A stretch of 34,218 nt of DNA, taken from Parafrankia sp. EUN1f (GTDB lineage: Bacteria; Actinomycetota; Actinomycetes; Frankiales; Frankiaceae). The notes under the pieces were generated by a model. That model was not told where the DNA came from and did no database searches. It saw only the letters and a program-made list of their open reading frames with translations. This document shows, in pieces, positions 11,812 through 26,613 of the stretch (its first letter is position 1; every line of letters begins with the position of its first letter). The stretch spans positions 1 through 34,218 of the forward strand of contig NZ_ADGX01000090.1 in NCBI RefSeq assembly GCF_000177675.1, in the 5' to 3' direction. A program made the translations under genes and the position numbers.

Positions 11812-11826
11812 CTGACGGTTCATCAG
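11812..11826. promoter_or_regulatory. Operator site 1, CTGACGGTTCATCAG
   Basis: One of five related 15-bp palindromes in this window (others at 17427, 18525, 21906, 26577). It lies between the divergent amidohydrolase and alcohol dehydrogenase genes. A perfect 10-bp palindrome TCAGATCTGA (11806-11815) overlaps it. The flank CAGGAAACGAG is also found beside the P450 site read on the minus strand. Confidence 0.65.
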
Positions 11827-11858
11827 GAAACGAGGAAGCCGACACCCAGGGGGTCGCG

Positions 11859-12923
11859 GTGCCCGAGGCCAGCATGCCCGCCTACCGCCTCACCGACTGG
11901 CTCCAGCAGCCCACGCTCGTGGATATCGCGGTCCCGCGACCGGGCCCGGGGGAGGTCCTGGTGCGGGTCGCGGGCAACGGGCTGTGCCACTCGGATCTGA
12001 CCATGCATCAGATCCCGGCGGAGATCGGGGCCACACTGGGCTGGCGGGTGCCGTTCACCCTCGGGCACGAGATCGCCGGCTGGATCGCCGACGCCGGCGA
12101 CGAGGCAGCCGCGGCGACGGCCGCACCGGGCACGCCCGTCGTGCTGGTGTCACCGGCCTCCTGCGGGCGCTGCCGCTACTGCCTGCGCGGGCTGGACAGC
12201 GCCTGCCCCGACGGCCTGGCGGGCCGCGGCTACGGCCGGGACGGCGGGCTGGCCCCGTACGTGATCGCTCCGGCCGGGCGCGGAGTCGTCCCGCTGACCA
12301 CGCTCGACCCGGTGGAGGCCGCACCGCTGACGGATGCCGGCGCCACCTCTTACCACGCGGTTCGCCGCGCACTCCCCCGGCTCGGCCCGGGATCATGGGC
12401 CGTGGTCCTCGGTGCCGGCGGACTCGGCGCGTTCGCCGTCCAGCACCTGAAGGCGCTCAGCGCCGCCCGAGTGGTGGCGGTGGACCGCGCCGCGGGGCGC
12501 CGCGTGCTCGCCCGCGAGCTGGGCGCCGACGAGGCCATCGACGGGATCACCTCAGCCACCACGCATGACCTTGCCGACGTGTGCGGCGCGCAGGCGGCGG
12601 ATGTCGTCCTCGACTTCGTCGGGACCGACGCCAGCATCGCCACCGGCCTGCGCGCACTGGCCCCCGCGGGCGCCTTCGGCCTGGTCGGATCGGCCGGCGG
12701 CACCCTGCGGCGCGGCTGGTACGGAACCCTGCCCCGCGAGGCGGAGATCTTCACCTTCCAGGGGTCGACCGTCGCCGACCTCCAGGACGTGATCGCGCTC
12801 GCGGAGGCCGGCCGCATCCGCCCTCTCGTCGACCGGTTCGCCCTGGCCGACATCGACGAGGGCTACGCCGCCCTGGCTGCCGGCGCCCTACACGGCCGCG
12901 CCGTGGTCATCCCGCCCACCTGA
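11859..12923 (+). CDS. Zinc-dependent alcohol dehydrogenase (MDR family)
   Basis: I chose the GTG at 11859 because AGGGGG lies six bases upstream; ATG 11874 is an alternative. The protein has 354 residues. Counting from this start, catalytic zinc ligands are C43 (GLCHSD) and H70/E71 (LGHEIAG), and the structural zinc is held by C102, C105, C108 and C116 (CGRCRYCLRGLDSAC). The Rossmann nucleotide site is VLGAGGLGAFAVQHL, and VVAVDR places an aspartate where NAD-preferring enzymes have it. It oxidises an alcohol to an aldehyde or ketone, or the reverse; the substrate is unknown. The family is clear. Its promoter shares the palindromic operator with the divergent amidohydrolase, suggesting both act in one pathway. 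Confidence 0.88.
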   Translation: MPEASMPAYRLTDWLQQPTLVDIAVPRPGPGEVLVRVAGNGLCHSDLTMHQIPAEIGATLGWRVPFTLGHEIAGWIADAGDEAAAATAAPGTPVVLVSPASCGRCRYCLRGLDSACPDGLAGRGYGRDGGLAPYVIAPAGRGVVPLTTLDPVEAAPLTDAGATSYHAVRRALPRLGPGSWAVVLGAGGLGAFAVQHLKALSAARVVAVDRAAGRRVLARELGADEAIDGITSATTHDLADVCGAQAADVVLDFVGTDASIATGLRALAPAGAFGLVGSAGGTLRRGWYGTLPREAEIFTFQGSTVADLQDVIALAEAGRIRPLVDRFALADIDEGYAALAAGALHGRAVVIPPT

Positions 12924-13080
12924 ACCGACGTTCCTGCTCGACAGCAGCACCAACCGGAAGCCGCGACTCGGAGAGCCACCGCCCGCCGCGCGGCGACCCA
13001 CCGGGAATCCCGCGCCGCCGCACCGCGCCAGCATTTCACACCAATAGGCGCAAATGGGGCGGAGATTCGCTTGACGATCC

Positions 13081-13132
13081 GCAGGAATTGGGGATTTCGG
13101 TTGTTGCAGCAGCCGAAATCCTCAATTCTTGC
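13081..13132. repeat. Dispersed hairpin repeat, copy A
   Basis: Twenty-base arms (13081-13100 and 13113-13132) with two mismatches surround a 12-base loop. The core is GGATTTCGG/CCGAAATCC. It belongs to the same family as the elements at 15089-15275, 21481-21700 and 26155-26206, recognised by a GAGGATTYYGG stem and CTTGC ends. Confidence 0.7.
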
Positions 13133-13179
13133 TGGAAAGCAGCGGCGGCAGCGGAAGTCGAAGTCCGGTATTCCGCGAC

Positions 13180-13206
13180 GGGCCGTTCCGGTGACCGGAA
13201 CGGCCC
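13180..13206. terminator. 12-bp perfect hairpin, bidirectional terminator
   Basis: GGGCCGTTCCGG (13180-13191), TGA loop, CCGGAACGGCCC (13195-13206). It is placed between the convergent ends of the alcohol dehydrogenase and marR genes, followed by a short T-containing run. Confidence 0.75.
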
Positions 13207-13229
13207 GAGCCTTTCCCGACAGCGAATGA

Positions 13230-13808
13230 TCAAGAGAAATCGACGGCGCAGGATTTGCGCGCCGGGGGGACCGATCGGCCGGTCGGGTCGACCTGGGCGT
13301 CCAACATCCCCACCCGCATGCGGTCGAGAAGCTCGGCGAGATGCCGGCGCTCGGCGGCCGTGAAGCCGTCGAGCGCCACGCCGATGTCGTGCAGGCCCAC
13401 CTCGCGGACCGCGGCCAGCAGCGCCTCGCCGTGCTCGGTCGGGGCGAGCCGGGCCACCCGCCGGTCCGCGCCGTCCGCGGACCTGCTGACCAGGCGATGT
13501 TCCTCCAGCGGACGCAGCTGCCGGCTCACCGTCGACTGGTCGAGATCCAGCCAGCGGGCCAGGTCTGAGGACGTCGCGCTGCCGTGCCGGGCGATCCACC
13601 GCAGCAGGGTGAGGCTCGCGCCGGTGATCGGCGCGCCGGCGGCCCGCAGCATCCGCTCCCGCTGCCGCGGGCTGCGCGCGGCCAGCCCGACCAGCTCGAT
13701 GAACTCGTGGATGCGGGCCAGGTCCTGGTCCGGCCCCTGATCCGCCACCGGCCCCTGATCCGGCTCCAGCCCCTGATCCGGCTTCTGGCTCGCATCCACG
13801 CAGCTCAC
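13230..13808 (-). CDS. MarR-family transcriptional regulator
   Basis: About 192 residues from GTG 13808; the start is uncertain (GTG 13799 or an upstream ATG overlapping the flavoenzyme gene are alternatives). The core is a winged helix: ITGASLTLLRWIARHG, then SATSSDLARWLDLDQSTVSRQL (recognition helix) and the wing RSADGADRRVARLAPTEHG, the DxR signature of MarR proteins. Residues 4-25 carry repeats (DQGLEP, DQGPVA, DQGP) from tandem CCCCTGATCCG units near 13730-13790. It lies 41 bases downstream of the flavoenzyme on the same strand, so it is probably co-transcribed and may control that gene, whose promoter has its own imperfect palindrome. Ligand unknown. Confidence 0.85.
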   Translation of the reverse strand: MSCVDASQKPDQGLEPDQGPVADQGPDQDLARIHEFIELVGLAARSPRQRERMLRAAGAPITGASLTLLRWIARHGSATSSDLARWLDLDQSTVSRQLRPLEEHRLVSRSADGADRRVARLAPTEHGEALLAAVREVGLHDIGVALDGFTAAERRHLAELLDRMRVGMLDAQVDPTGRSVPPARKSCAVDFS

Positions 13809-13849
13809 GCCGTCGCTGTCGTCGCCGCGGTCGCTGCCGAGGCCGCCGG

Positions 13850-14974
13850 TCAGTCCTCCAGCACCGCCCCGAGCCGCTGGGTCGTCTCGATCCATTCCTC
13901 CACCATCTCGCGCATGACCTCGGCCGTCGGGCGCCGGCGGTCGAGGCTGCCCACGATCTGCCCGACGGGGAAGCCGCTCAGCGCCTTCGTTCCGGCGCGG
14001 GTCCAGCGCCGCGATGCCTCCCCCCACACAATGCCCTGCAGCGGCATCGGCAGGGTCTTCGGGGCGTCCTCGCGCTCCCATGCGTCCGTCCAGGCGCTGC
14101 GCAGCAGCCGGGCGGGCTTGCCCGTCATCGCGCGGGAACGCACCGTGTCCCGCGAGGTGGCCGCGAGCAGGTTCTCGACGATGGGCTCGGCGGTGTCGGC
14201 CTCGGTGACGGTGAGCCACACCGAGCCCGTCCAGGCGCCCTGGGCGCCGAGCGCGAGCGCGGCGGCGATCTGCCGGCCGCCGCCGATCCCGCCGGCGGCG
14301 AGCACCGGGACACCCGGCCCCACCGCGTCGACGACCTCGGGCACCAGGACCATCGTGCTGACCTCGCCGCAGTGCCCGCCCGCCTCGGTGCCCTGGGCGA
14401 CGATGATGTCGACACCCATCTCGACCTGCTTGACGGCGTGCCGCTTCGCGCCGACGAGCGCGGCCACCAGCACACCCTGGGCGTGGGCACGGTCGATGAC
14501 CTCCTTCGGCGGCGGCCCCAGCGCGTTGACCAGCAGTTTCACCGGATGCTTGAGGGACACCTCGACCTGCCCCGGCCCCTCCTGCTCGATGCCGAGCCCG
14601 GCCGCCTTCAGATCACCCCCGGCGGCCGCGTCCGCGGGCAGCGGCGGGACGTCGTGCTCGGCCAGGACGGACTCGGCGAAACGACGATGCTCGTCGGGCA
14701 CCAGCTCGACCATCCTCTCCCTGGTGATCTCCGCTCCGCCTCCCTTCCCGACGTACGAGTTCGGCATGACGATGTCGACGCCGTAGGGCCGGCCGTCGAC
14801 GTGCTCGTCGATCCAGGCCAGTTCGACCTCGAGCTCCTCGGGGTTGAAGGCGAGCGCCCCCAGCACCCCGAACCCACCCGCCCTGCTGACAGCCGCGACG
14901 ACGTCCCGGCAGTGCGAGAAGGCGAAGATCGGGAACTCGATGCCGAGCAGGTCGCAGACAGGAGTACGGGCCAT
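13850..14974 (-). CDS. Nitronate monooxygenase-like flavoenzyme
   Basis: The 374-residue protein starts at ATG 14974 with a strong site (GAGGAGG). It has the TIM-barrel nitronate monooxygenase/2-nitropropane dioxygenase fold: N-terminal RTPVCDLLGIEFPIFAFSHC, flavin site VLAAGGIGGGRQIAAALALGAQGAW, and QGTEAGGHCGEV, which carries the histidine of the family active site. From memory it is closest to the mycobacterial Rv1533-type group, not to IpdC. Members bind FMN and oxidise nitronates or reduce/oxidise enoyl substrates; the physiological substrate is unknown. A marR gene follows on the same strand. The promoter contains an imperfect palindrome (CTTGCATGTATACAAG) close to the start, a probable site for that regulator. 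Confidence 0.85.
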   Translation of the reverse strand: MARTPVCDLLGIEFPIFAFSHCRDVVAAVSRAGGFGVLGALAFNPEELEVELAWIDEHVDGRPYGVDIVMPNSYVGKGGGAEITRERMVELVPDEHRRFAESVLAEHDVPPLPADAAAGGDLKAAGLGIEQEGPGQVEVSLKHPVKLLVNALGPPPKEVIDRAHAQGVLVAALVGAKRHAVKQVEMGVDIIVAQGTEAGGHCGEVSTMVLVPEVVDAVGPGVPVLAAGGIGGGRQIAAALALGAQGAWTGSVWLTVTEADTAEPIVENLLAATSRDTVRSRAMTGKPARLLRSAWTDAWEREDAPKTLPMPLQGIVWGEASRRWTRAGTKALSGFPVGQIVGSLDRRRPTAEVMREMVEEWIETTQRLGAVLED

Positions 14975-15310
14975 ACGTCCTCCTCAGGAGAATTAACTTG
15001 CATGTATACAAGCATGTTTCTCGGACCAGTGGAAGGCCGCGAAATTTCGCCGCCTCGGCACGCGTCGTCAGCGGACCAGCCGACGTGATCCGCGGATTCT
15101 GGTCGTCCGGGAACGCGCGGCGGAGTCCCAGGCACCGGGCTGCTGCCGAGCAAGACCTGAGGACTCTGGTCGCGGCGACGACAAAAATGTGCACATCGTC
15201 GAGCCTCGACTTCGGACTTCCATTGCTACCAGGCAAGACCGGGTGATTCTGGTTGTTGGAACGACCAGAATCCGCCGATCTTCGGACGTCTCCCTGCAGA
15301 GCCGCCCGGC
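14975..15310. other. Gap with NMO promoter and hairpin repeats (copies B)
   Basis: There is no gene in these 336 bases. Next to the flavoenzyme start are its operator-like palindrome and ribosome site. The rest carries three pieces of the dispersed repeat: GCGGATTCTGGTCGT near 15089, GCTGCTGCCGAGCAAG followed by ACCTGAGGACTCTGG at 15139-15168, and a perfect 9-bp hairpin GATTCTGGT (15245-15253)/ACCAGAATC (15264-15272). Confidence 0.65.
14997..15012. promoter_or_regulatory. Imperfect palindrome CTTGCATGTATACAAG
   Basis: Half-sites CTTGCATG/TATACAAG match at six of eight positions, centred 30 bases upstream of the flavoenzyme start. GCATG is repeated directly on both sides. It is a likely operator for the MarR protein encoded at the end of this operon. 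Confidence 0.45.
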
Positions 15311-16132
15311 TCAGGCGGTCATGCCGCCGTCAACCGGGACGATCGTCCCGGTCATCAGGCTGGCCTCGGCGGATGCCAGGAAGGCGATGACGCGCGCGAC
15401 GTCGTCCGGCTCACCGAAGCCCCCCGGCACCGTGAGCTTGCCGAGCAGCTTCATCGACGCCCCTTCGGGGGGCATGAAGCCGGCGATGATGTCGGTGTCG
15501 ATGCCGCCGGGCGCCACCGCGTTCACCCGGATGTTCCTGCTGACGTACTCCCAGGCCAGCGCCTTGGTGAGCATGACGACGCCGCCCTTGGACGCGCAGT
15601 AGGCGGCGCTGTAGGGCTGGGCGCGCAGCCCGGCGCTGGACGCGACGTTGACGATGGTGCCGCCGTCACGAGCCAGGAAACCGGCCAGGCACGCCCGGCT
15701 CATCAGGAACGTTCCGGTGAGGTTGACGTCGATGATCCTGCGCCAGTCGGCGAGGGGCTGCTCCGCGGTGTGCGCGAACCAGCCGATCCCGGCGACGTTC
15801 GCGAGCACCCTGGGTGCGCCCAGGTCATCCTCGACGGCGCGGACGGCGGCCGCCACCGACTCCTCGTCGGAGACGTCGCAGGCGAAGGCGCGGGCCGCGC
15901 CGCCGGCCTCGACGATGCCGGCGGCGGTCTTCTCCGCCTGGTCGATCCGGACGTCCAGGCAGGCCACGGTCGCGCCGCGGGTGGCGAGCCGGTGCGCCGT
16001 CGCCGCGCCGATGCCGCGCGCCGCGCCGGTGACGATCGCCACCGCGCCATCGAAACCACCAGAGATACCGAAGCCAGCAGAACCGCCGGAGCCAGCCGAG
16101 CTACCGGGGCTGTCGGGGCTGTCGGGGCTCAC
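15311..16132 (-). CDS. Short-chain dehydrogenase/reductase (classical SDR)
   Basis: The 273-residue protein starts at GTG 16132, overlapping the P450 stop by four bases (GTGA), so it is translated with the P450. Residues 2-26 are a Ser/Pro/Gly-rich tail with short repeats (SPD, GSGGSAGF). The cofactor site is TGAARGIG (35-42) with D60 after the second strand, indicating NAD preference. NVAG lies at 112-115, the catalytic serine at 165/166, and Y178 and K182 form YxxxK. It ends with the typical TGTIVPVDGG. It oxidises or reduces a hydroxyl/keto group; together with the P450 it may act on a sterol-like or isoprenoid alcohol. The exact substrate cannot be told from sequence. Confidence 0.88.
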   Translation of the reverse strand: MSPDSPDSPGSSAGSGGSAGFGISGGFDGAVAIVTGAARGIGAATAHRLATRGATVACLDVRIDQAEKTAAGIVEAGGAARAFACDVSDEESVAAAVRAVEDDLGAPRVLANVAGIGWFAHTAEQPLADWRRIIDVNLTGTFLMSRACLAGFLARDGGTIVNVASSAGLRAQPYSAAYCASKGGVVMLTKALAWEYVSRNIRVNAVAPGGIDTDIIAGFMPPEGASMKLLGKLTVPGGFGEPDDVARVIAFLASAEASLMTGTIVPVDGGMTA

Positions 16133-17358
16133 TGACCACGCTCCGGCACGAAGCGGACCGGCATTTCCTTCACACCGTTGATGAAGTTCGATCGCAGGCG
16201 GCGGGCGGGCGCGATCGGCTCGATCCGGTCCAGCCGGGTGACCAGCGTTTCGAGCATCAGCTCGATCTCGCGCATCGCCAGGTGCTTTCCGAGGCAGAAG
16301 TGCGGGCCGCCGCCACCGAAGCCCACATGCGGGTTCGGGTCGCGGTCGATGTCGAAACGGTAGGGGTCGGCGAACACCGACTCGTCGTAGTTCGCCGACG
16401 AGTAGTACATGATCACCTTCTCGCCGGCGGCGATCGGCTGGCCGCCGAGCACCACGTCGGTCGTGGTCGTGCGGCGGAAGCCCATCACCGGGCTGACCCA
16501 GCGGACGATCTCGTCCGCCGCCCTGGTGAGCACCGCCGGGTCTGACCTGCCCGCCCTGAGCTTCTCCCACTGTTCAGGATGGTCCAGCAGCGCCTGCATG
16601 CCGCCGGAGATGGCATTTCGCGTGGTCTCGTTGCCGGCGACCATGAGCAGGATGAAGAACAGGTCGAACTCCATCTCGGACAGCTCGTGACCGTCCTCGT
16701 CGGCGGTGACGAGCTTGGTCAGGATGTCGTCGGCCGGGCAGCCGCGCCGCGCCGCGCCCAGCTCGTTCGCGTAGGCATACGCCTCCATGGCTGCGGCCTG
16801 CTGGTCGGCCGCGTCGGCGGACAGCTCGGGATCGTCGCTGGCCAGCATCCGGTTCGACCAGTTGAACAGCCGGTGTCTGTCCTCATGCGGGACGCCGATC
16901 AGCTCCGCGATCACGACGAGCGGCAGCTCCGCCGCGCAGATCCTCACGAAGTCGCCCTCGCCGGCCTCGATCGCGCGGTCGACGATCTTCTCGCAGGAGG
17001 TCCGGATCTTGTCGGCGAGGCGCCCGATCATGCGCGGGGTGAAGCCGCGGTTCACCAGGCTGCGCAGCCGGGTGTGCTCCGGCGGGTCCTGGTTGACCAT
17101 CATGAGCTGCTGCTCGGCCAGGGCTTCCGAGGTGAGCTCGGGCAGCAGGCAGGTCTCCCGGTTGGACGAGAACTGGTCCGGGCTGCGGGAGATGTGCACG
17201 ACGTCCGCGTGCCGGGTCACCGCCCAGAAGCCGGCCTCGCGCTCCGGGTCGCGGTGGTGGAACACCGGTGCCTGGGCCCGCAGGATCCTGAACTCGTCAT
17301 GCGGCAGCCCCTGGACGTAGCGGCCGGGATCGTAGACATCGATCTGGTCGAGCGACAT
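16129..17358 (-). CDS. Cytochrome P450, CYP125-like
   Basis: The 409-residue protein starts at ATG 17358 with GGAGGT eight bases upstream. The oxygen-activating I-helix motif is AGNETT (241-246), the K-helix ExxR is in ADEIVRW, and the haem ligand is C355 in HVGFGGGGPHFCLG. The segments PPEHTRLRSLVNRGFTPR, GDFVRICAAELPL, GVPHEDRHRLFNWSN and NPHVGFGG closely follow mycobacterial CYP125, the steroid C26/C27 monooxygenase that starts cholesterol side-chain breakdown. It needs ferredoxin partners, which are not in the window. Its promoter holds a KstR-like box and a second 15-bp palindrome, so two regulators may act. CYP142 is a less likely alternative. The SDR downstream is translationally coupled. 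Confidence 0.88.
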   Translation of the reverse strand: MSLDQIDVYDPGRYVQGLPHDEFRILRAQAPVFHHRDPEREAGFWAVTRHADVVHISRSPDQFSSNRETCLLPELTSEALAEQQLMMVNQDPPEHTRLRSLVNRGFTPRMIGRLADKIRTSCEKIVDRAIEAGEGDFVRICAAELPLVVIAELIGVPHEDRHRLFNWSNRMLASDDPELSADAADQQAAAMEAYAYANELGAARRGCPADDILTKLVTADEDGHELSEMEFDLFFILLMVAGNETTRNAISGGMQALLDHPEQWEKLRAGRSDPAVLTRAADEIVRWVSPVMGFRRTTTTDVVLGGQPIAAGEKVIMYYSSANYDESVFADPYRFDIDRDPNPHVGFGGGGPHFCLGKHLAMREIELMLETLVTRLDRIEPIAPARRLRSNFINGVKEMPVRFVPERGQ

Positions 17359-17395
17359 GTCGGGACCTCCGAGATCCGTCGCGTCCGCCAAGCTT

Positions 17396-17413
17396 AAAAC
17401 TAGAACAGGTTCT
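17396..17413. promoter_or_regulatory. KstR-like box upstream of P450
   Basis: AGAACAGGTTCT at 17402-17413 has perfect arms AGAAC/GTTCT and matches the known KstR consensus (TnnAACnnGTTnnA) at all but the last position. The left flank AAAACT is shared with the fadA5 site at 21935. Confidence 0.6.
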
Positions 17414-17426
17414 CGCGTCTCGTTTC

Positions 17427-17441
17427 CTGACGCAATATCAG
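17427..17441. promoter_or_regulatory. Operator site 2, CTGACGCAATATCAG
   Basis: The most divergent member of the 15-bp palindrome family, 69 bases upstream of the P450 start. Its flanks match other sites: CAGAAACC on the plus strand as at 26577, CAGGAAACGAG on the minus strand as at 11812. Confidence 0.55.
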
Positions 17442-17474
17442 AAACCACATTGGGGGCCGGACGAGCCGAGCGGG

Positions 17475-18461
17475 TCAGCGAAGCTCGTCGACGTAGGCCT
17501 GCGTTCCGGGCAGGGTGGGGACGAACGGGGCGAGCAGCTCCAGCCGGCCGAGGCCCGACTTCTCCCAGTCCGCGGCGGCCGCGGTGAAGCCGGGCTCCCA
17601 GCACTCGGCCGGCGTCGTCTCGGTGAACCACAGCACGGTCAGGCGGCGCCCGAGACCGGCGACCTGGTCCACATAGGCCATCCGGTCCTCCGGCAGCGGC
17701 AGCGGGGTGAACAGCAGGCCCATCGCCGCCGCGCCACCGGGCGCGAGCACCCGCGGCGCGCGCTCGGCGCGCAGCCAGTCGACGAGGGCGGAGACGGCCG
17801 CGCCACCCACACCAGCCACATCACCCACACCAGCCGCGTCACCCGCACCGGCCGAGGCCTCATCCACCGCGGCCTCGCCCACCGCGGCCTCGCCCACCGC
17901 GGCCTCGCCCACCGCGTCGACGACCTCGACCACCAGGCCACCATACGGATGGTCCAGCGCGTGGATATCGCGCACACCGCCGCGGCCGTCGCGATACACC
18001 GCGCCGAGATAGTCCTGGAACGCGGTGAAGACGTGGTCACGCCGGTGGAAGATGCGTCCGTCGGCGTTGAGCCGCCGGTTCGTGGCGACGGTCCACCGCA
18101 TGTGGTCGCGGTAGCGGCCGCGGGTCAGCCAGTAGACCGCGATGTACTTGCCGGCCTCCAGCGGCCGCGCGACGGCCGAGTCGGCCGGCTCGCGCAGCGC
18201 CTGCAGCGCCCTGGGCGCCACCCAGCGCCGGCCGGCGAACATCCAGGGCATCGCCATGGCACCCGCGTAGAAGTGATCGTCCTCGTACCAGCGGTTGTAC
18301 TCGGCCTCCGCACCCGGATGCGGCTCCACCATCGTGATCAGCGCGGAGCCGATGGCGACGCCGTACGGGCCGGCGGCGGGAAGCACGGAGTACGGGCTGA
18401 CGGAGTATGGGCTGTTGGAGTCGGGGCTGTCGACGGAATCTGCCACCGCGTCGTCCGGCAC
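17475..18461 (-). CDS. EthD-like dimeric barrel protein, function unknown
   Basis: The 328-residue protein starts at GTG 18461 with GGAGGGA eight bases upstream. I do not recognise a named family. The first half (about 35-175) has GSALITMVEPHPGAEAEYNRW, then YEDDHFYAGAMAMPWMFAGRRW, resembling ferredoxin-like EthD/Dabb domains in which a short barrel binds an aromatic or hydrophobic ligand. The second half (about 225-325) seems to repeat the fold (MGLLFTPLPLPEDRMAYVDQV, VLWFTETTPAECWEPGF). Between them is a low-complexity linker of VGEAA and GDAAGV repeats coded by 15-base tandem units (about 17795-17925). It lies upstream of the P450 on the same strand and diverges from an LLM oxidoreductase, with a shared operator. 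A role in the same oxidative pathway is inferred. Confidence 0.7.
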   Translation of the reverse strand: MPDDAVADSVDSPDSNSPYSVSPYSVLPAAGPYGVAIGSALITMVEPHPGAEAEYNRWYEDDHFYAGAMAMPWMFAGRRWVAPRALQALREPADSAVARPLEAGKYIAVYWLTRGRYRDHMRWTVATNRRLNADGRIFHRRDHVFTAFQDYLGAVYRDGRGGVRDIHALDHPYGGLVVEVVDAVGEAAVGEAAVGEAAVDEASAGAGDAAGVGDVAGVGGAAVSALVDWLRAERAPRVLAPGGAAAMGLLFTPLPLPEDRMAYVDQVAGLGRRLTVLWFTETTPAECWEPGFTAAAADWEKSGLGRLELLAPFVPTLPGTQAYVDELR

Positions 18462-18524
18462 GGCTGAACTCCCTCCGCTCCGGGCGCACGTCGGCCCGGA
18501 ACGCGGTCCACTCAAGCACGGAAT

Positions 18525-18557
18525 CTGGTGACCCGTCAGAAAATCTTTGAATACACT
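18525..18557 (+). promoter_or_regulatory. Operator site 3 overlapping a leaderless promoter
   Basis: The palindrome CTGGTGACCCGTCAG (18525-18539; reverse complement CTGACGGGTCACCAG) covers the likely -35 GTGACC. After 18 bases comes the -10 TACACT (18552-18557), only eight bases before the ATG at 18566, so the mRNA is probably leaderless. A protein bound here would block the promoter directly. It also faces the EthD-like gene. Confidence 0.65.
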
Positions 18558-18565
18558 CTGCTGCC

Positions 18566-19531
18566 ATGATCGTTTCTCGCGGCCCGTCCGTCGTGCCCCG
18601 CGGGGCACTCGCCTTCGGGATCCAGCTGCCGATCCAGGCGCAGAGCAGCCTGTTCGCCGAGCCCTGGGAGGCCACGGCCACACCGGACGACCTCGCGGCG
18701 ATCGCCCGCGCGGCGGACGAGCACGGCTTCTTCTACGTCGCGGTGTGCGACCACGTCGCGATCCCCCGCCAGCTCGCCGCCGCCATGGGCACCACCTGGT
18801 ACGACTCCGTCGCGACCCTGAGCTGGCTGGCCGCGGCGACGACCCGGGTACGGCTGCTCAGCCACGTCTACAACCTCGCCTACCGGCACCCGCTGGTGAC
18901 GGCGAAGGCCTTCGCGACCCTCGACCGCCTCTCCGCCGGCCGGGTCATCCTCGGGGTCGGCGCGGGGCATGTCGCGGACGAGTTCGCCGGCCTGGGGCTA
19001 AATTTCTCCCGTCGCGGGCGCATGCTCGACGACGCGATCGAGGTCGTCGACGCGGCCCTGCGCACCGAGTTCCCGACGGTCGCGAACGCCAGCTTCACCG
19101 TCGACGGGCAGCTCGGGCTCGCGCCCCGGCCGGTGCAGGACCCGCGCCCGCCGTTGTGGATCGGCGGCTCGTCGCCGGCGGCAGTGCGCCGGGCCGCGCG
19201 GCTCGGCGACGGGTGGTTACCCCAGGGCACCCCGCTCGACCAGCTGCCGCCGCTGGTCGAGCTGCTGCGCGCCGAACGCGCGGCGGCCGGCGTCGCCCAG
19301 CCCTGCGACATCGGCGCGATCACCGACTGGCTGCACCTCGGCCAGCCGACCTGGGACGTCGGTCGCCCCTGCCAGGCCGGGACGCCGGCGCGGATCGCCG
19401 AGCACCTGCGCCGCTACCGCGACGTCGGCGTCGACCACCTGCAGGTGCGGTTCCCCAGCCGCGGCCCGGCCGAGCTGATCGATCAGATCGCGGCCTTCGG
19501 CTCCGAGGTGGGGCCCCTGCTGGCCCCCTGA
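18566..19531 (+). CDS. LLM-class F420-dependent oxidoreductase
   Basis: The 321-residue luciferase-like TIM-barrel protein has typical segments: FGIQLPIQ at the first strand, FFYVAVCDHVAIP, TTRVRLLSHVYNLAYRHPLVTAKAFATLD, SAGRVILGVGAGHVADEF, and PPLWIGGSSPAAVRRAARLGDGW. In actinobacteria this subgroup usually uses the deazaflavin F420 to transfer hydride to or from a carbonyl or enone. No ribosome-binding site precedes the ATG, which fits leaderless translation from the -10 at 18552. It is divergent from the EthD-like gene with the operator between. The substrate is unknown; the context of P450, SDR and thiolase suggests a sterol- or isoprenoid-derived intermediate. FMN use cannot be excluded. 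Confidence 0.87.
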   Translation: MIVSRGPSVVPRGALAFGIQLPIQAQSSLFAEPWEATATPDDLAAIARAADEHGFFYVAVCDHVAIPRQLAAAMGTTWYDSVATLSWLAAATTRVRLLSHVYNLAYRHPLVTAKAFATLDRLSAGRVILGVGAGHVADEFAGLGLNFSRRGRMLDDAIEVVDAALRTEFPTVANASFTVDGQLGLAPRPVQDPRPPLWIGGSSPAAVRRAARLGDGWLPQGTPLDQLPPLVELLRAERAAAGVAQPCDIGAITDWLHLGQPTWDVGRPCQAGTPARIAEHLRRYRDVGVDHLQVRFPSRGPAELIDQIAAFGSEVGPLLAP

Positions 19532-19653
19532 CCATCGCCCCTGGCCGCCAACCCCCTGGCAGCCAGCCCCTGGCCGCCTGACCGCCGGCCCTCTGGCTGC
19601 TCACCCCCCGCCGCCGGCCGTCTGACCGCTGACCCCTGACACGCTCCCCGGCG

Positions 19654-20745
19654 TCAGAGCAGCTCGATGAGCTTCCGCAACGCTTCCGGGTCGCGCACGC
19701 CGCCGATCAGCAGGGTGTCGACGGGCGAGGCCCGCCACAGCTCGAGGCGCTCCCGGATCCGCGCCCAGGGCCCGACCAGCGCGATGCCGTCGGCGAGATC
19801 GTCCGGGACGGCCCGCACGGCGGCCTCCCGCTCCCCCGCGAGGAACAGCTGCTGCACCCGTGCGGCGGCGTCGGCGAAACCGAACCGCGACACGACGTCC
19901 ACATGGAAGTTGACGTCCTTGGCGCCCATGCCGCCGAGGTAGAACGCCAGCGTCCATTTGATGCGCAGTAACGCCGCCTCGACGTCGTCGTCCACGACCA
20001 CCGTCACCGGGCAGGCGATCGAGAAGTCGGCGGGCGCCCCGGCCAGCGCCGCCGCGTACGCCGCGGGCCCGCGCTCGGGGTGGTAGAAGATCGGCAGCCA
20101 GCCGTCGGCGATCTCGGCGGCCAGCGCCACGTTCCCCGGGCCCTCGGCGCCGAGGTAGACCGGGATCCGCGGCCGCAGCGGATGCGTGGTGATCTTCAGC
20201 GGCTTGCCGAGCCCGGTGACGCCCCGCGCCGGGCCCGAAGCCGCTGTCGCGGCCGCAGCCGACGACGGCAGGCCCGAGGCCGCAGCCGGCGCCGACGGAG
20301 ACAGTGGCAGCGGATAGTGCGGCCCGTCGCTGGTGACCGGGGCATCGCGGCGCCACACCGCCCGCAGGATGTCGACGTACTCCCGGGTCCGGGCGAGCGG
20401 CCGGGCGAAGGGCTGCCCGTACCAGCCCTCGACCACCTGCGGGCCGGACACGCCGAGCCCCAGCAGGAACCGCCCGCCGGACAGGTGGTCCAGGGTCGCC
20501 GCGGTCATCGCGAGGCAGGCCGGCGTGCGGGCGGAAAGCTGTGCCAGCCCGGTGGCGAGGGTGATCCGGCTCGTCCGCGACCCCAGCCAGGCCAGCGGGC
20601 TGATCGCGTCGGAGCCGTAGGCCTCGGCCGTCCACACCGACGCGTAGCCGTACTCCTCGGCGGCGAGCGTCAGCTCGAGATGATCGTCCGGTGGCACCGC
20701 CGGCCAGTAGCCGAGCATCAGGCCGAGTGCCAGATCAGCGGTCAC
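19654..20745 (-). CDS. LLM-class F420-dependent oxidoreductase (second)
   Basis: The 363-residue protein starts at GTG 20745 with AGGAGGA upstream. Luciferase-like motifs are YGYASVWTAEAYGSDAISPLAWLG, TSRITLATGLAQLSARTPACLAMTAATLDHLS, GRFLLGLGVSGPQVVEGWYG and IPVYLGAEGPGNVALAAEIADGWLP. It is only distantly similar to the LLM enzyme at 18566, so it is not a recent duplicate. An alanine/serine-rich insertion (about residues 155-182) precedes GLGKPLKITTHP. The family reduces or oxidises substrates with F420; the substrate is unknown. It is divergent from kstR with a 101-base gap and convergent with the first LLM gene, with a short gap of CCCCTGGCCGCC repeats between them. Confidence 0.87.
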   Translation of the reverse strand: MTADLALGLMLGYWPAVPPDDHLELTLAAEEYGYASVWTAEAYGSDAISPLAWLGSRTSRITLATGLAQLSARTPACLAMTAATLDHLSGGRFLLGLGVSGPQVVEGWYGQPFARPLARTREYVDILRAVWRRDAPVTSDGPHYPLPLSPSAPAAASGLPSSAAAATAASGPARGVTGLGKPLKITTHPLRPRIPVYLGAEGPGNVALAAEIADGWLPIFYHPERGPAAYAAALAGAPADFSIACPVTVVVDDDVEAALLRIKWTLAFYLGGMGAKDVNFHVDVVSRFGFADAAARVQQLFLAGEREAAVRAVPDDLADGIALVGPWARIRERLELWRASPVDTLLIGGVRDPEALRKLIELL

Positions 20746-20833
20746 AACAGTCCTCCTGGATGGGTTCTGTCCTGGTTGCGCATGGATTGCCGCCTGCTCG
20801 GATGTCCGCACCCGGGTTCGGGCTGATCACAGG

Positions 20834-20846
20834 TACGCTCCGGTCC
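20834..20846 (+). promoter_or_regulatory. kstR -10 box, probably leaderless
   Basis: TACGCT (20834-20839) is followed after seven bases by the kstR ATG (20847). The same GGTACGCT string precedes the TetR gene at 26614. No clear -35 is visible. Confidence 0.45.
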
Positions 20847-21452
20847 ATGGCGTCACCGGCGGTTCCGCCCTCCGCGGACAGTGACGGGCTGGACAGGCCC
20901 GCCCAGCGAGCACGGCGGGAGCGGATTCTGGACGCCGCCGTCGCGCTCGGGTCCGAGGGCGGCTACGACGCCGTGCAGATGCGGGCGGTGGCGGAGCGCT
21001 CCGGCGTCGCGCTCGGGACGCTGTACCGCTACTTCCCGTCGAAGGTGCAACTGCTGGTGTCCGCGATGGCCCGCGAGATCGACGGCATCCGGCTGCCGTC
21101 CGCCGAGCGCATGGCGGGCCTCGCCCCGGCGGACCGGATCCTGACGGTCCTCAGCCGCGCCACCAAGGTCTTCCAGCGGGACCCGAACCTGGCCGGCGCG
21201 CTGGTCCGGGCGGTCATGTTCGCGGACGCGTCGGCCACCGCCGAGGTCGACCAGGTCACCCAGCGGATGAACTCGATCATCATTCGCATGATGCGCGGTG
21301 AGGACGGCGATCCGTCCCCGCGTGACATCGCGGTGGCGGGCCTGATCGCCAAGGTGTGGTTCGTCAGCGAGATCCAGTGGCTGTCCGGCCGCACCAAGGC
21401 CCGGCAGGTGATCGACGACCTGGAACTGGTCGTCCGCGAGCTCGTCCACTAG
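20847..21452 (+). CDS. kstR: TetR-family sterol catabolism repressor KstR
   Basis: The 201-residue protein has a helix-turn-helix (about 18-65) that nearly copies mycobacterial KstR: RRERILDAAVALGSEGGYDAV, QMRAVAERSGVALGTLYRYF, PSKVQLLVSAMARE. The ligand domain also keeps KstR segments (RDPNLAGALVRAVMFADASATAEVDQV, and an AKVWFVSEIQWLSGRTKARQV tail). KstR represses cholesterol-degradation genes until a 3-oxo-cholestenoyl-CoA type ligand releases it. KstR-like boxes stand before fadA5 and the P450 in this window, which fits its role. None is seen before kstR itself, so autoregulation as in mycobacteria is not supported here. The ATG is probably used without a leader. Confidence 0.85.
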   Translation: MASPAVPPSADSDGLDRPAQRARRERILDAAVALGSEGGYDAVQMRAVAERSGVALGTLYRYFPSKVQLLVSAMAREIDGIRLPSAERMAGLAPADRILTVLSRATKVFQRDPNLAGALVRAVMFADASATAEVDQVTQRMNSIIIRMMRGEDGDPSPRDIAVAGLIAKVWFVSEIQWLSGRTKARQVIDDLELVVRELVH

Positions 21453-21480
21453 CACTGCCGCGCCTGGCGTTGCTACCGGA

Positions 21481-21700
21481 CAAGCGTTGAGGATTTTGGT
21501 CGTGCCCGCAGCCAGAATCCTCAGGTCTTGCTCGGCAGCAGCCGCAGGACCCGCCGCTTCCTGAAGCCACCGCCCGAAACCCTGAGGATTTTGGTTGTGC
21601 CCGCAGCCAGAATCCTCGGGTCTTGCTCGGCAGCAGCGGCGGCCCGCGGCTCGGGATTCTGCTACCCGCTCGCCGACGACCAAAATCCTCAACTCCTCGA
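21481..21700. repeat. Dispersed hairpin repeats, copies C1-C3
   Basis: Copy C1: GAGGATTTTGG (21489-21499) pairs with CCAGAATCCTC (21512-21522). Copy C2: the same at 21584-21594 and 21607-21617. Both are followed by TCTTGCTCGGCAGCAGC. Copy C3 ends with CGACGACCAAAATCCTC near 21675-21690. C1 starts 37 bases after the kstR stop and could end its transcript. Confidence 0.75.
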
Positions 21701-21748
21701 CCGCGGCCGACTCCAATCGGGCCGACACCCCTGCCACCCGACACCCCT

Positions 21749-21796
21749 GCCACCCGAGGCCGCTGCCACCCGAGGCCGCTGCCACCCGAGGCCGCT
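21749..21796. repeat. 16-base tandem repeat GCCACCCGAGGCCGCT, three copies
   Basis: Three exact units (21749-21764, 21765-21780, 21781-21796) plus degenerate neighbours, in the non-coding gap before the fadA5 promoter. There are no spacers, so this is not a CRISPR array. Confidence 0.75.
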
Positions 21797-21873
21797 GCCG
21801 CCCGGGGTCGCACCCCGGCCGCCGCGCGCCCTCACCGGGCCTGCGCACGTCCCCGTCCGCCACCGCTCCGATG

Positions 21874-21885
21874 AGAACGCGTTCT
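21874..21885. promoter_or_regulatory. KstR-like box, distal to fadA5
   Basis: AGAACGCGTTCT is a perfect 12-bp palindrome and matches the KstR consensus core AAC-N2-GTT. It is 112 bases upstream of the fadA5 start. Confidence 0.55.
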
Positions 21886-21905
21886 ACCGCGATTCACAAG
21901 AACTC

Positions 21906-21920
21906 CTGATGGGTCATCAG
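21906..21920. promoter_or_regulatory. Operator site 4, CTGATGGGTCATCAG
   Basis: The only perfectly symmetric member of the five-site family (CTGATG/CATCAG around GGT). It lies between the two KstR-like boxes of the fadA5 promoter. Confidence 0.65.
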
Positions 21921-21927
21921 ATGATGA

Positions 21928-23162
<1,235 letters not shown>

Positions 23163-23163
<1 letters not shown>

Positions 23164-23768
23164 TGGACGTCCTGCTGTTCCTGTTCATGCGGCGCGCGGG
23201 CATGACGGTCGACGCCTTCCGCCGGTACTACCTCGACGTGCACGTGCCGCTGGCGATCCGGACGTCGACGGCGACCGGCCGGTATGTCGTCCGGCTGACC
23301 GAGGACGGGCACGGCCCCGTCTCCGTCGACGCCGTCACCGAGATCGTGACCCCCTCCGCCGACGTCTTCTTCGACCCCGACCGCGGCTTCACCTCGCCCG
23401 AGGACGCCGTCGAGGTCATCACCGACTCGCTGAACTTCCTCGCCCCCTTCCCGATCTACCAGGTCCGCCGCACCGTGCTGCGGGCCGCCGACCGATCCGG
23501 TGGCCTGGAGGAGCATGTGCCGGGCTCCCGCTCACCGGGGGTGACGCTGGCCCGGCTCGAGCTCGGTGACGGCGGCCCGGCCGGGCCGGTGCCGGACCCA
23601 CCGGACGAACTCGTCCGGGACCACCTCAGATATGACGTCCTGAAAACGATCGGTGAAGGCCCTGATCTGCGTTCAGTCGATCTAGTGCACCTGCGGCCCG
23701 GCGCAGACGTGGACCGTTACGCCGCCGACTTCTACCTTCTGGGGGAGTACGTCCAGAAGGTTCGTTGA
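23163..23768 (+). CDS. EthD-domain protein coupled to fadA5
   Basis: The 201-residue protein starts at ATG 23163, overlapping the fadA5 stop by one base (TGATG), so it is translationally coupled. Residues 1-100 look like an EthD ferredoxin-like domain: LLFLFMRRAGMTVDAFRRYYL, DVHVPLAIRT, and PSADVFFDPDRGF. EthD proteins form small dimeric barrels and are often needed for, or encoded next to, P450 or ring-cleavage systems, with unclear chemistry. The C-terminal half (about 115-201) is less conserved, ending LVHLRPGADVDRYAADFYLLGEY. Its presence in a KstR-type operon is notable; I do not know an EthD gene in the mycobacterial fadA5 operon. The role is inferred only from neighbours. Confidence 0.8.
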
Positions 23769-23826
23769 CCCAGCGAGACAACCGCGCCGCGATTCGGCGC
23801 CGACCGCACAGGAAGCGGGTCCGCAG

Positions 23827-24939
23827 ATGAAGACGAAGGCCGCAGTGCTCTGGAACGTCGGTGATCCATGGAGCGTCGAGGAGGTCGACCTCGACCCGCC
23901 GAAGGCCGGCGAGGTGCTCATCCGGGTGGTCGCAGCCGGGTTATGCCACTCCGACGACCACCTGACGACCGGTGACATGCCGTCGGTCCTGCCGATGGTC
24001 GCCGGCCACGAGGGCGCCGGGATCGTCGAGGAGGTCGGGCCGAACGTCACCCGGGTCCGCCCGGGTGACCACGTCGTCGTGATGTTCATGCCCAGCTGCG
24101 GGCACTGCCGCTGGTGCGCCACCGGCCGGACGAACCTGTGCGACCTCGGCGGGTCGCTGATGATGGGTGTCGGCGTCGACGGGACGTCCCGGCTGCACGC
24201 CCGGGGCAAGGACGTCACGACGATGTGCTTCCTCGGCACGTTCAGCCAGTACGCCGTGCTGCACGAGGCGTCCGTCATCAAGATCGATGACGACCTGCCG
24301 ATGGACGCCGCCGCGCTGGTCGCCTGCGGGGTGCCCACCGGCTTCGGCTCCGCCGTGCACACCGCCGGGGTGCGCCCCGGGGAGGCCGTGGTCGTGGTCG
24401 GTGCCGGCGGGGTCGGCATGAACGCGATCCAGGGCGCCCGGATCGCCGGCGCGGAGCTGATCATCGCGGTGGACCCGGTGGAGTTCAAGCGCGACCAGGC
24501 GAAGGTCTTCGGGGCGACCCACACCAGCCCGTCGATGGCGCAGGCCACCGAGCTCGTCCGCGAGCTGACCAGGGGCGTCATGGCCGACGCGGCGATCCTG
24601 ACCGTCGGCGTGGCGCACGGAGACCAGATCGCGCCGCTGCTCGGGCTCGTGTCGAAGGGCGGGCGGGCGGTCGTCACCGCGGTCGCGCCGGCCGTCGAGA
24701 CCGACGTGACCCTGTCCCTGTTCGATCTGACCATCTTTCAGAAGGAGCTGCGCGGCACACTGTTCGGCGCGTCGAACGGGCAGGCCGACATCCCCCGGCT
24801 GCTGTCGCTCTACCGGTCCGGCCAGCTCAAGCTGGACGAGCTGATCACCACCCGCTACACCCTGGACGAGATCAACACCGGCTACGACGACATGCGGGCC
24901 GGCCGCAACATCCGCGGCGTCATCCTCCACGGGCACTGA
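23827..24939 (+). CDS. NDMA-type zinc alcohol dehydrogenase
   Basis: The 370-residue protein starts at ATG 23827 (CAGGAAG upstream). Zinc ligands: C40 (GLCHSDDHL), H61/E62 (AGHEGAG), and structural cysteines C91, C94, C97 and C105 (CGHCRWCATGRTNLC). The segments MKTKAAVLWNVGDPW, LGGSLMMGVGVDGTSRLHARG, MCFLGTFSQYAVLHEASVIKI and LRGTLFGASNGQADIPRLLSLY are hallmarks of the Rxyl_3153/NDMA-dependent alcohol dehydrogenase group. This group holds its NAD tightly and is tied to mycofactocin-linked redox cycling in actinobacteria. It would oxidise an alcohol, perhaps a product of the P450. It lies 58 bases after the EthD gene on the same strand and four bases before the epimerase gene, so it is likely in the fadA5 operon. 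Confidence 0.9.
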   Translation: MKTKAAVLWNVGDPWSVEEVDLDPPKAGEVLIRVVAAGLCHSDDHLTTGDMPSVLPMVAGHEGAGIVEEVGPNVTRVRPGDHVVVMFMPSCGHCRWCATGRTNLCDLGGSLMMGVGVDGTSRLHARGKDVTTMCFLGTFSQYAVLHEASVIKIDDDLPMDAAALVACGVPTGFGSAVHTAGVRPGEAVVVVGAGGVGMNAIQGARIAGAELIIAVDPVEFKRDQAKVFGATHTSPSMAQATELVRELTRGVMADAAILTVGVAHGDQIAPLLGLVSKGGRAVVTAVAPAVETDVTLSLFDLTIFQKELRGTLFGASNGQADIPRLLSLYRSGQLKLDELITTRYTLDEINTGYDDMRAGRNIRGVILHGH

Positions 24940-24943
24940 CGGC

Positions 24944-26086
24944 ATGCGCACCGGCAGCACGATCCTCGTCACCGGGGTGACCGGCCAGGTCGCCAGGCCC
25001 CTGGCCGCCGCCCTCGCCCGGGAGCACACCGTCTACGGCGCGGCCCGCTTCCGCGACAGCGGCATCCGCGACGTTCTGACCGCTGCCGGTGTGCGCTGCG
25101 TACCGGTCAACCTTGTGACCGCAGGGCGGGACGGCCTCGCCGCCCTGCCCGAGCAGGTCGACCACGTGCTCCACTTCGGCGTGGTCAAGAGCAACCGGTG
25201 GGGCGTCGACCTCGACGGAAACGTCGGCGGGACGCTGGCACTCATGGAGCGCTACGCCGCCGCCCGGTCCTTCCTGCACTGCTCCTCCGGCGCCGTGTAC
25301 GCGGACGCGGGCGGCCCGGTCGACGCGGGCGGCGGCCCGGCGGGCGGGAGCGACGGCCCAGCGGGTGGGAGCGACGGCCCAGCGGGCGGGAGCGACGGCC
25401 CAGCGGGCGGGAGCGGCCCACGGGCGGGCGGGAGCGATGGCCCGGCGGGCGCGGGTTCGGGCGCGGGCGGCGGTGACCCTGCGGGGGCGGTCCGGCCCCT
25501 CGCCGAGGGCGACCGGCTCGGGGACAGCCACCATGTCCTGCCGTTCCTGGCCACCTACAGCGTCTGCAAGATCGCCGCGGAGGGGGCGGCCCGGTACGGT
25601 GCCACCCGTTTCGGGCTGCCGACGACGATCGCCCGCCTGAACATGCCGTACGGGCCCTTCGGTGGTCTCCCCCTCTACCACCTCGACATGATCGCCGCGG
25701 GCATGCCGGTAACCGTGCACCCCGACGGCCCCAGCCGCTACCAGCTGATCCACGACGACGACATCGTGGCGATGGTGCCCGCGCTGCTCGCCGCGGCCGA
25801 CGTGCCGGCAACGGTCGTGAACTGGGCCGGCGACGAGGCGGTCAGCGTCGAGCAGTGGTGCGCCGAGCTGGCCGCCCTCACCGGGCTGAGCCCGGTCATC
25901 GAGCCGTCACCGGAGAACCTGCGCGGAGTCGTGCTCGATCTGACGACCATGCACACCCTCGCCGGGCACGCCCGGGTCGACTGGCGGGAGGGGCTGCGCC
26001 GCAGCGTGGCCGCGCGCCGCCCCGACCTGCTGCGCCCCGAGCACCAGTCGTCGGCGCACCCCGGCCCCGGCCCCGCACCCGCCTGA
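24944..26086 (+). CDS. NAD-dependent epimerase/dehydratase with Gly-rich insertion
   Basis: The 380-residue extended-SDR protein begins with ILVTGVTGQVARPLAAALA (nucleotide site) and has FLHCSSGAVYAD (catalytic serine region) and YSVCKIAAE (YxxxK). Between serine and tyrosine, where the family normally has about 15 residues, lies an extra low-complexity block of roughly 55 residues built of GPAGGSD units (21-base tandem repeats, about 25315-25460). The rest continues normally (ARLNMPYGPFGG, YQLIHDDDIVAMVPALL, NWAGDEAVSVEQW). All catalytic residues remain in frame. The family acts on nucleotide sugars or hydroxy-ketones; here a 3-beta-hydroxysteroid-dehydrogenase-like role is possible. It follows the NDMA-type dehydrogenase by four bases and has a proline-rich C-terminal tail. 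Confidence 0.83.
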   Translation: MRTGSTILVTGVTGQVARPLAAALAREHTVYGAARFRDSGIRDVLTAAGVRCVPVNLVTAGRDGLAALPEQVDHVLHFGVVKSNRWGVDLDGNVGGTLALMERYAAARSFLHCSSGAVYADAGGPVDAGGGPAGGSDGPAGGSDGPAGGSDGPAGGSGPRAGGSDGPAGAGSGAGGGDPAGAVRPLAEGDRLGDSHHVLPFLATYSVCKIAAEGAARYGATRFGLPTTIARLNMPYGPFGGLPLYHLDMIAAGMPVTVHPDGPSRYQLIHDDDIVAMVPALLAAADVPATVVNWAGDEAVSVEQWCAELAALTGLSPVIEPSPENLRGVVLDLTTMHTLAGHARVDWREGLRRSVAARRPDLLRPEHQSSAHPGPGPAPA

Positions 26087-26154
26087 CCGCCTGGCCGCCT
26101 GACCGCCTGTAGCCACGTCATCGGGATGAGAGCGCGGGCTGCCACTGCTGCCGA

Positions 26155-26206
26155 GCAAGAAGTGAGGATCATGGCTGCTGCAGCAACCGAAATCCTCACT
26201 TCTTGC
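26155..26206. repeat. Dispersed hairpin repeat, copy D
   Basis: Perfect 15-base arms: GCAAGAAGTGAGGAT (26155-26169) and ATCCTCACTTCTTGC (26192-26206) around a 22-base loop containing CTGCTGCAGCAACCG. It is preceded by CTGCTGCCGA, the same flank as copies B and C. It lies 69 bases after the epimerase stop, so it may also end that operon. The rest of the gap 26087-26576 has short CCGCCTGA repeats and no gene. Confidence 0.78.
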
Positions 26207-26576
26207 GGATTGCCAAGCGACCTCGTGTCCCCTTTTGCCGCTATTGATGCTAATTGTTCGAGCTTCGCGGCGGCGCGGGATCCCCGGCGGGTCGGCGTGC
26301 GTCGGCGCGCGTCGGGTGAGCACGAACCACCGGGTCAATATGCGGTGGGCGCGTCACAGAATCCCGAGAAGTGGGTGATCGCAGGCCTCAACGCGTCGAG
26401 CCGCCGCTGCGGCTGCCGCCTGCCAGTGGCGATCCCAGCCGAGCCTCGACCTCGTGATCCAACCTCGTCGCCCCCACCCCCAGGTGCGCCCGGCGTGATC
26501 CGACCTCCCAGCACCGTCGCCGGTCGCCCCGGCACACGAGATCGGCGCGCAGGGTGGCTGGCGTCACAATGCAAAT

Positions 26577-26613
26577 CTGACGGGTCGCCAGAAACCGCCG
26601 GTACGCTTGCAAC
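26577..26613 (+). promoter_or_regulatory. Operator site 5 and leaderless promoter of tetR
   Basis: The palindrome CTGACGGGTCGCCAG (26577-26591) covers the probable -35 (TGACGG, 26578-26583). Eighteen bases later is the -10 TACGCT (26602-26607), six bases before GTG 26614. This geometry copies the LLM promoter at 18525 and suggests autoregulation by the TetR product. Confidence 0.65.

What the first reader, a model, noticed from the sequence alone, without database searches (positions are those of the whole stretch)
11812..26591. A shared 15-bp palindromic operator in five promoters defines a local regulon
Seen directly: CTGACGGTTCATCAG (11812), CTGACGCAATATCAG (17427), CTGGTGACCCGTCAG (18525; reverse complement CTGACGGGTCACCAG), CTGATGGGTCATCAG (21906) and CTGACGGGTCGCCAG (26577). 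All lie in intergenic promoter regions, none in a gene body. They control in principle amidohydrolase/alcohol dehydrogenase, P450-SDR, EthD-like/LLM, fadA5-EthD-ADH-epimerase and the TetR gene itself. In two cases the motif covers the -35 of a leaderless promoter. I know no named regulator with this motif. Inference: the TetR at 26614 is the binder and represses itself and the island.
Basis: partly seen in the sequence, partly recalled or inferred. Interest (0 to 1): 0.85.

Follow-up and report, generated by a model that had tools for sequence, protein, structure and literature searches.

The report
Conserved second repressor of steroid-breakdown genes
A short mirror-image DNA site in front of steroid-breakdown genes in this soil actinobacterium is very probably the docking site of a neighbouring repressor protein; protein and site are conserved together in many actinobacteria, and here several of these promoters also carry the docking site of a second, known type of steroid repressor.

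Summary
The five sites exist as stated and lie in promoters, with likely start codons. The loose pattern built from them is at background genome-wide, and window counts alone do not prove it. Comparison does. Orthologues of TetR 26614 carry the palindrome at the matching promoter position in G004 and in all 7 genus-g6 genomes with an orthologue. Strict CTGAYGN3CRTCAG occurs 99 times in 80 named orthologue loci; three scrambled controls gave 0. Over 58 genomes its density follows the TetR, with exceptions. A model trained on other genera recovers two window sites. So TetR 26614 as binder and self-repressor is well supported, though not shown biochemically. "Local" is wrong: at least three further promoters in this genome carry the site. 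Best reading: a conserved acyl-CoA/steroid-catabolism TetR regulon, here layered onto KstR-type control of side-chain degradation.

The parts
11812..11826 (.). Palindromic operator CTGACGGTTCATCAG, divergent amidohydrolase / ADH promoter; no KstR-type box listed there
   Evidence: G004 has CTGACTGATCATCAG there and G014 has CTGACGGACCGTCAG at the orthologous pair; recovered by model R1
17427..17441 (.). Palindromic operator CTGACGCAATATCAG, cyp125 promoter
   Evidence: identical in G004; not among the R1 hits
17401..17414 (.). KstR-type box TAGAACAGGTTCTC, 26 bp from the palindrome (start to start)
   Evidence: motif from PMC1995591 (passages)
18525..18539 (.). Palindromic operator (reverse complement CTGACGGGTCACCAG), divergent EthD-like / LLM promoter
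   Evidence: identical in G004, and CTGTCGACCCGTCAG at the orthologous place in L037, L038 and L042; not among the R1 hits
21906..21920 (.). Palindromic operator CTGATGGGTCATCAG, fadA5 promoter
   Evidence: G004 has CTGACGGCCCATCAG; not among the R1 hits
21873..21886 (.). KstR-type box GAGAACGCGTTCTA, upstream of the fadA5 palindrome
21939..21952 (.). KstR-type box TAGAACACGTACTA, downstream of the fadA5 palindrome
26577..26591 (.). Autoregulatory operator CTGACGGGTCGCCAG upstream of a TACGCT -10-like hexamer and the TetR GTG
   Evidence: same place in G004 and in the 7 g6 loci with an orthologue; recovered by R1
26614..27453 (+). TetR-family regulator (TetR_N + TetR_C_38), proposed binder
20847..21452 (+). 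KstR-like TetR regulator (open frame from 20691), best KstR match in the genome
   Evidence: 211-212 bits, cut-off 280; KstR structures, best E 2e-44
16129..17358 (-). CYP125-type steroid C26-monooxygenase
   Evidence: CYP125MRCA E 9e-156; steroid C26-monooxygenase/CYP125 entries about 1e-110
17475..18461 (-).
18566..19531 (+). F420-dependent LLM oxidoreductase (TIGR03619)
21997..23163 (+). FadA5, steroid 3-ketoacyl-CoA thiolase (NF005889, 634 bits, cut-off 515)
23160..23768 (+). EthD-domain protein (PF07110, found in the open frame 22260-23768)
23827..24939 (+). NDMA-dependent alcohol dehydrogenase (TIGR03989)
24944..26086 (+). NAD-dependent epimerase/dehydratase family protein
10423..11757 (-). 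Amidohydrolase (Amidohydro_2); start uncertain
11859..12923 (+). Zinc-type alcohol dehydrogenase; start 11859 or 11874

Best explanation
TetR 26614 is a conserved actinobacterial repressor. It binds a 15-bp palindrome (19 bp with flanks, AT-CTGAYG-N3-CRTCAG-AT) in its target promoters, including its own. In this genome its targets are catabolic genes: CYP125, FadA5 and their neighbours in the window, and a ChsH/Ltp2-type cluster, an aldehyde dehydrogenase and an amidohydrolase elsewhere. At five promoters the palindrome lies beside a KstR-type box, very likely bound by the KstR-like protein encoded at 20847-21452. Those genes would open only when both repressors are released, presumably by different CoA-thioester or steroid intermediates. 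Shown by sequence: sites, positions, co-conservation, box adjacency. Inferred: binding, repression, the two-key logic and the ligand.
For: The operator is at the same place before the TetR orthologue in G004 and in the 7 g6 genomes with an orthologue, with near-start sites in G045 and G047. Strict palindrome in named TetR-orthologue loci: 99 sites, 59 of 80 loci, three scrambled controls 0; CTGACG is the commonest perfect 6-3-6 half-site there, 47 against 35 for the next, masked N runs left out. 75 of 97 such sites are intergenic or at gene edges by my ORF caller, with A/T-rich flanks; the window sites have A or T at all ten second flanking bases (read). Density 1.26/Mb in 13 genomes with the orthologue (own included) against 0.34/Mb in 44 without, G046 left out; rank test p 3.6e-5 with G046 kept. 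In G051, 7 of 23 strict sites lie within about 32 kb of the TetR, several beside relatives of this genome's genes. Model R1 (48 sites, none found in the own-genus loci checked) gives 9 places in 9.35 Mb, among them window 11810 and 26574, C370 and two on C393. KstR-type boxes: 6 of 13 lie within 150 bp of a loose-pattern palindrome, 0.03 expected; outside the window contig 3 of 10, 0.02 expected. The recognition-helix stretch TSxATFYQYF is invariant but for x in the 13 aligned sequences (its role as recognition helix is recalled).
Against: No binding or expression data. The loose pattern is at genome background, and the window alone is not significant after searching all half-sites. 21 of 80 named loci, some short, hold no strict site, and 22 of 97 sites lie inside called ORFs. 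G055 has an orthologue (172 bits) but no strict site; G020 (g6) has 9 sites with no strong TetR match; G046 has 193 sites, many inside genes, with only an 84.6-bit match. R1 did not list three window sites and hit two places inside called ORFs (C371, C386); only 150 of 4219 first-look candidates were scored. The C393:93767 palindrome lies just inside a called ORF whose true start may be later. KstR-type boxes as a set are only modestly above control (13 against 8). In Streptomyces the near-start site overlaps coding sequence, so its conservation may be coding.
Confidence: 0.8

Rival explanations
1. The palindrome is bound by the KstR-like protein (20847-21452) or another regulator that travels with the pathway, not by TetR 26614.
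For: Both regulators co-occur: a KstR-like protein was found in 8 of 8 tested genomes with the TetR orthologue and in 0 of 3 same-genus genomes without it, and in 5 of 5 Streptomyces/Actinomadura records.
Against: Of 14 KstR-like loci scanned, 9 have a KstR-type box (1-2 mismatches) near the gene and 2 more (G000, G004) have boxes at the nearby fadA5 promoter; a strict palindrome appears only in those two, a one-mismatch one in L245. The KstR motif is different and experimentally known (PMC1995591, passages). The palindrome sits at the TetR gene's own promoter and near it in other genomes.
Confidence: 0.08
2. Chance similarity: five of many weak palindromes in GC-rich promoters, with no common binder.
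For: Loose pattern at background in window and genome; all-half-site test in the window not significant.
Against: Conservation at orthologous promoters, at fadA5 with changed centre bases, and enrichment in TetR-orthologue loci and genomes.
Confidence: 0.04
3. TetR 26614 binds the sites but acts as an activator, or mainly regulates a non-steroid acyl-CoA pathway, steroid genes being only its recent additions.
For: In Streptomyces L119 the flanking genes are CoA ligase, thiolases, an acyl-CoA dehydrogenase and an ATP-grasp CoA synthetase; in Actinomadura L069 a CoA synthetase and an amidohydrolase. No KstR-type box at up to 1 mismatch was found in the fetched G051 stretches.
Against: At the TetR promoter the site lies just upstream of the -10-like hexamer or over the start region, as expected for repression. 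In this genome the targets include CYP125 and FadA5.
Confidence: 0.3

Closest known systems
KstR (Rv3574) regulon
   Same: TetR repressor with a short palindrome in many catabolic promoters, autoregulated (PMC1995591, passages); steroid side-chain genes (recalled)
   Different: KstR box is TAGAACN2GTTCTA; TetR 26614 does not match the KstR model and its proposed operator is CTGAYGN3CRTCAG. The KstR-like protein is a separate gene in this window.
EthR (M. tuberculosis)
   Same: Closest solved fold of TetR 26614 (VIA-align Z 19.5, rmsd 2.5, 192 aligned, 20% identity)
   Different: Low sequence similarity (27-28 bits); EthR's operator is described as larger and more complex (PMC4482099, passages).
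FasR / FadR / DesT acyl-CoA-responsive TetRs
   Same: Lower-ranking folds (Z about 15-16); acyl-CoA-type target genes
   Different: A shared fold does not show a shared ligand; none of the three was among the sequence matches.

Membership tests
TetR family (TetR_N, TetR_C_38) | N-terminal TetR HTH and TetR ligand-binding domain | tested here: met
   PF00440 E 4.1e-9, PF19352 E 5.5e-51; all-helical model, pLDDT mostly 75-95 over residues 71-270
TetR family (TetR_N, TetR_C_38) | Binds a short palindrome, usually as repressor | not testable with these tools
   only co-conservation of protein and palindrome
KstR (NF033703) for the protein at 20847-21452 | score above the curated cut-off of 280 bits | tested here: not met
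   211-212 bits; so called KstR-like, not KstR
KstR (NF033703) for the protein at 20847-21452 | nearest solved relative by sequence is KstR | tested here: met
   KstR chains E 2e-44 to 3.8e-44, next sequence E 1.8e-24
KstR (NF033703) for TetR 26614 | match to the KstR model | tested here: not met
   NF033703 is not among its five NCBIfam matches at E up to 0.001
EthR | sequence-level orthology | tested here: inconclusive
   about 27-28 bits over the HTH region; fold Z 19.5
CYP125 | best sequence relation to solved CYP125 | tested here: met

The most novel reading that the evidence does not exclude
A steroid/acyl-CoA TetR regulator for which I found no description, widespread in Actinobacteria (Frankiaceae, Actinomadura, Streptomyces), has been layered onto KstR-type control in Frankiaceae. 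Side-chain degradation genes (cyp125, fadA5, chsH/ltp2-type) then sit behind a two-key switch of two TetR repressors on adjacent operators, each sensing a different pathway intermediate.
Probability: 0.5. Interest if true: 0.62.

Novelty: new member of a known kind. Interest (0 to 1): 0.55.

Why it matters
It gives a conserved TetR family an operator, a regulon and a direct test in many genera, Streptomyces included. It also suggests that steroid side-chain degradation outside mycobacteria can be under two repressors at once. CTGACGNNNCGTCAG and six further motif strings were found in no paper of the held open-access library, and no paper there holds Frankia, steroid and KstR together. Subscription papers are mostly not held, so this is no proof that the regulator is undescribed.

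Tried and rejected
Window-only statistics do not support the motif on their own. The loose genome pattern is at background. A KstR identity of TetR 26614 was rejected. Literature: a mycobacterial TetR survey (PMC4482099, passages) has its motifs as logos that are not held as text, so they could not be compared; PccD (PMC11596240, passages) has a different footprint; Frankia + CYP125 gave three papers, seen in the listing only and not relevant by title; I saw the listings, and passages of those papers named here; PMC4810484 (passages) has no occurrence of Frankia. Of the loose palindrome places looked at, those inside called ORFs (C205, C199, C189, C339) and the R1 hits C371 and C386 were set aside, as were the KstR-type boxes inside ORFs on C223, C237, C390 and C394. 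C245 lies between called ORFs, C267 is intergenic but far from a gene, C316's box is at the edge of a called ORF; these were left undecided. Most of the other 68 loose palindrome places (list) were not inspected.
Full report
OBSERVATION. The five 15-mers are at their coordinates. With likely start codons they lie between genes, in front of the divergent amidohydrolase/ADH pair, the P450, the EthD-like/LLM pair, FadA5 and the TetR gene. Statistically the window alone is not enough: the loose pattern is at background in window and genome, and a test over all half-sites in the window's intergenic DNA is not significant.

COMPARATIVE TEST. Of 58 genomes searched, the own one included, 13 have a TetR match above 150 bits; named relatives are in Pseudofrankia, Frankia, Frankiales MAGs, Actinomadura, Streptomyces and a few others (the 80 best of 552 relatives found, a capped list). 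G026 and G025 of genus g6 hold contigs of the same length as named contigs of Pseudofrankia sp. BMG5.36 and Frankia nepalensis CN7, so the window is from the Frankia family by inference. In G004 and in the 7 g6 genomes with an orthologue (of 8 g6 genomes; G020 has none above 150 bits), the palindrome, with at most 1 mismatch, sits just upstream of the TetR start, before a TACGCT-like hexamer and GTG. These 7 g6 loci also hold a second copy further up. G047 and G045 have near-start sites, G051 a weaker one over the start, G055 and G046 none. In G004 all five window sites are present, two with changed bases.

ENRICHMENT. In 80 named orthologue loci (1.28 Mb) the strict form occurs 99 times, in 59 of 80 loci; three letter-scrambled controls gave 0, and 136 kb of other loci gave 0. 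CTGACG is the commonest perfect 6-3-6 half-site there (47, next GATCCG 35; masked N runs left out). Of 97 sites in the 78 loci L064-L141, 75 are intergenic or at gene edges and 22 inside called ORFs; over 65 distinct sites read both ways, position -2 is A in 103 of 130 and position -1 is T in 81 of 130. In the window sites all ten -2 bases are A or T and 7 of 10 -1 bases are T (read). Across the 58 genomes: 133 sites in 105.7 Mb with the orthologue, against 79 in 230.3 Mb without, G046 excluded.

INDEPENDENT MODEL. R1, built from 48 sites of other genera, gave 9 distinct places at E up to 10 in this genome: C364:6110, C393:93765, C371:72166, C393:105796, window 11810, window 26574, C386:59149, C245:1469, C370:21375 (150 of 4219 first-look candidates scored). 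It did not list 17427, 18525 or 21906. C364:6110 is intergenic; C371 and C386 are inside called ORFs; C393:105796 lies inside a called ORF, about 130 bp from a KstR-type box.

THE SECOND REGULATOR. The best KstR match in this genome is in the window: 20901-21446, 212 bits, next best 90.8; below the curated cut-off of 280. KstR-type boxes, TAGAACN2GTTCTA with at most 1 mismatch (motif from PMC1995591, passages), occur at 13 places (control 8). Six lie within 150 bp of a loose-pattern palindrome: 17401, 21873, 21939, C370:21335, C393:84527, C393:93636; expectation 0.03, and outside the window contig 3 of 10 against 0.02. Four others (C223, C237, C390, C394) are inside called ORFs. The C370 promoter separates a ChsH1/ChsH2-type fusion (Pfam domains) and a downstream lipid-transfer protein (NF005892, 637 bits, cut-off 469; Ltp2 is my label) from an SDR. 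The C393 sites precede an aldehyde dehydrogenase and, between a binding-protein gene and an Amidohydro_2 gene, lie at or just inside the called Amidohydro_2 start. G014 shows palindrome and KstR-type box within 100 bp at three places. KstR-like proteins were found in 8 of 11 genomes tested: 8 of 8 with the TetR orthologue, 0 of 3 same-genus genomes without it; and in 5 of 5 Streptomyces/Actinomadura records. None passed the cut-off.

TARGETS. The P450 is CYP125-type; 21997 is FadA5 by NF005889 above cut-off. In Streptomyces L119 the palindromes flank a CoA ligase/thiolase pair, an IpdE2-related acyl-CoA dehydrogenase (214 bits, cut-off 450) with a thiolase, and a ChsH2-type OB protein with an ATP-grasp CoA synthetase; in Actinomadura L069 a CoA synthetase and an amidohydrolase. 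In G051, 7 of 23 strict sites lie within about 32 kb of the TetR, and four lie at or before relatives of this genome's amidohydrolases, LLM and EthD-like genes at 49-71% identity. Of G014's 13 strict sites, 12 were fetched; some lie inside called ORFs (for example in L221 and L226), most at gene starts.

PROTEIN. AlphaFold model: mean pLDDT 75, residues 15-66 under 50, 138 residues at 90 or more. Nearest solved folds: EthR Z 19.5, FasR 16.2, FadR and DesT about 15.5. The HTH stretch is nearly invariant over the 13 aligned sequences.

VERDICT. The operator and its TetR are real and conserved with high probability. The regulon is not local, and it is intertwined with KstR-type boxes at five promoters here. 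Direction (repression), ligand and two-key logic are inferred. On checking, confidence in the main explanation was lowered slightly (0.82 to 0.80) for the exceptions listed.

Noticed in passing
G046 (unnamed, same class, 5.5 Mb), whole genome: CTGAYGN3CRTCAG occurs 193 times (reversed control 0), many of them inside genes in the 30 loci looked at; in 240 kb, partly chosen near known sites, CTGACG palindromes have spacing 3 in 9 cases against 0-1 at other gaps. It looks like a genome-specific iterated palindrome, unexplained.
   Followed up: partly
window 20847-21452: KstR-like TetR gene between the LLM gene and fadA5, not mentioned in the finding.
   Followed up: yes
G000 contig C364:6110-6128 (L231, 4113): Best-scoring R1 site in the genome, AGATCTGACGGAGCGTCAGATCT, intergenic, upstream of a gene 44% identical to the window LLM at 19657.
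   Followed up: partly
window 8799-10121, minus strand: MPAB/Lcp-type (rubber oxygenase-like) protein beside the island, conserved in G004.
   Followed up: no
window 31397-33010: WD40-repeat protein.
   Followed up: no
window 13850-14974, minus strand: Nitronate monooxygenase-family protein inside the island.
   Followed up: no
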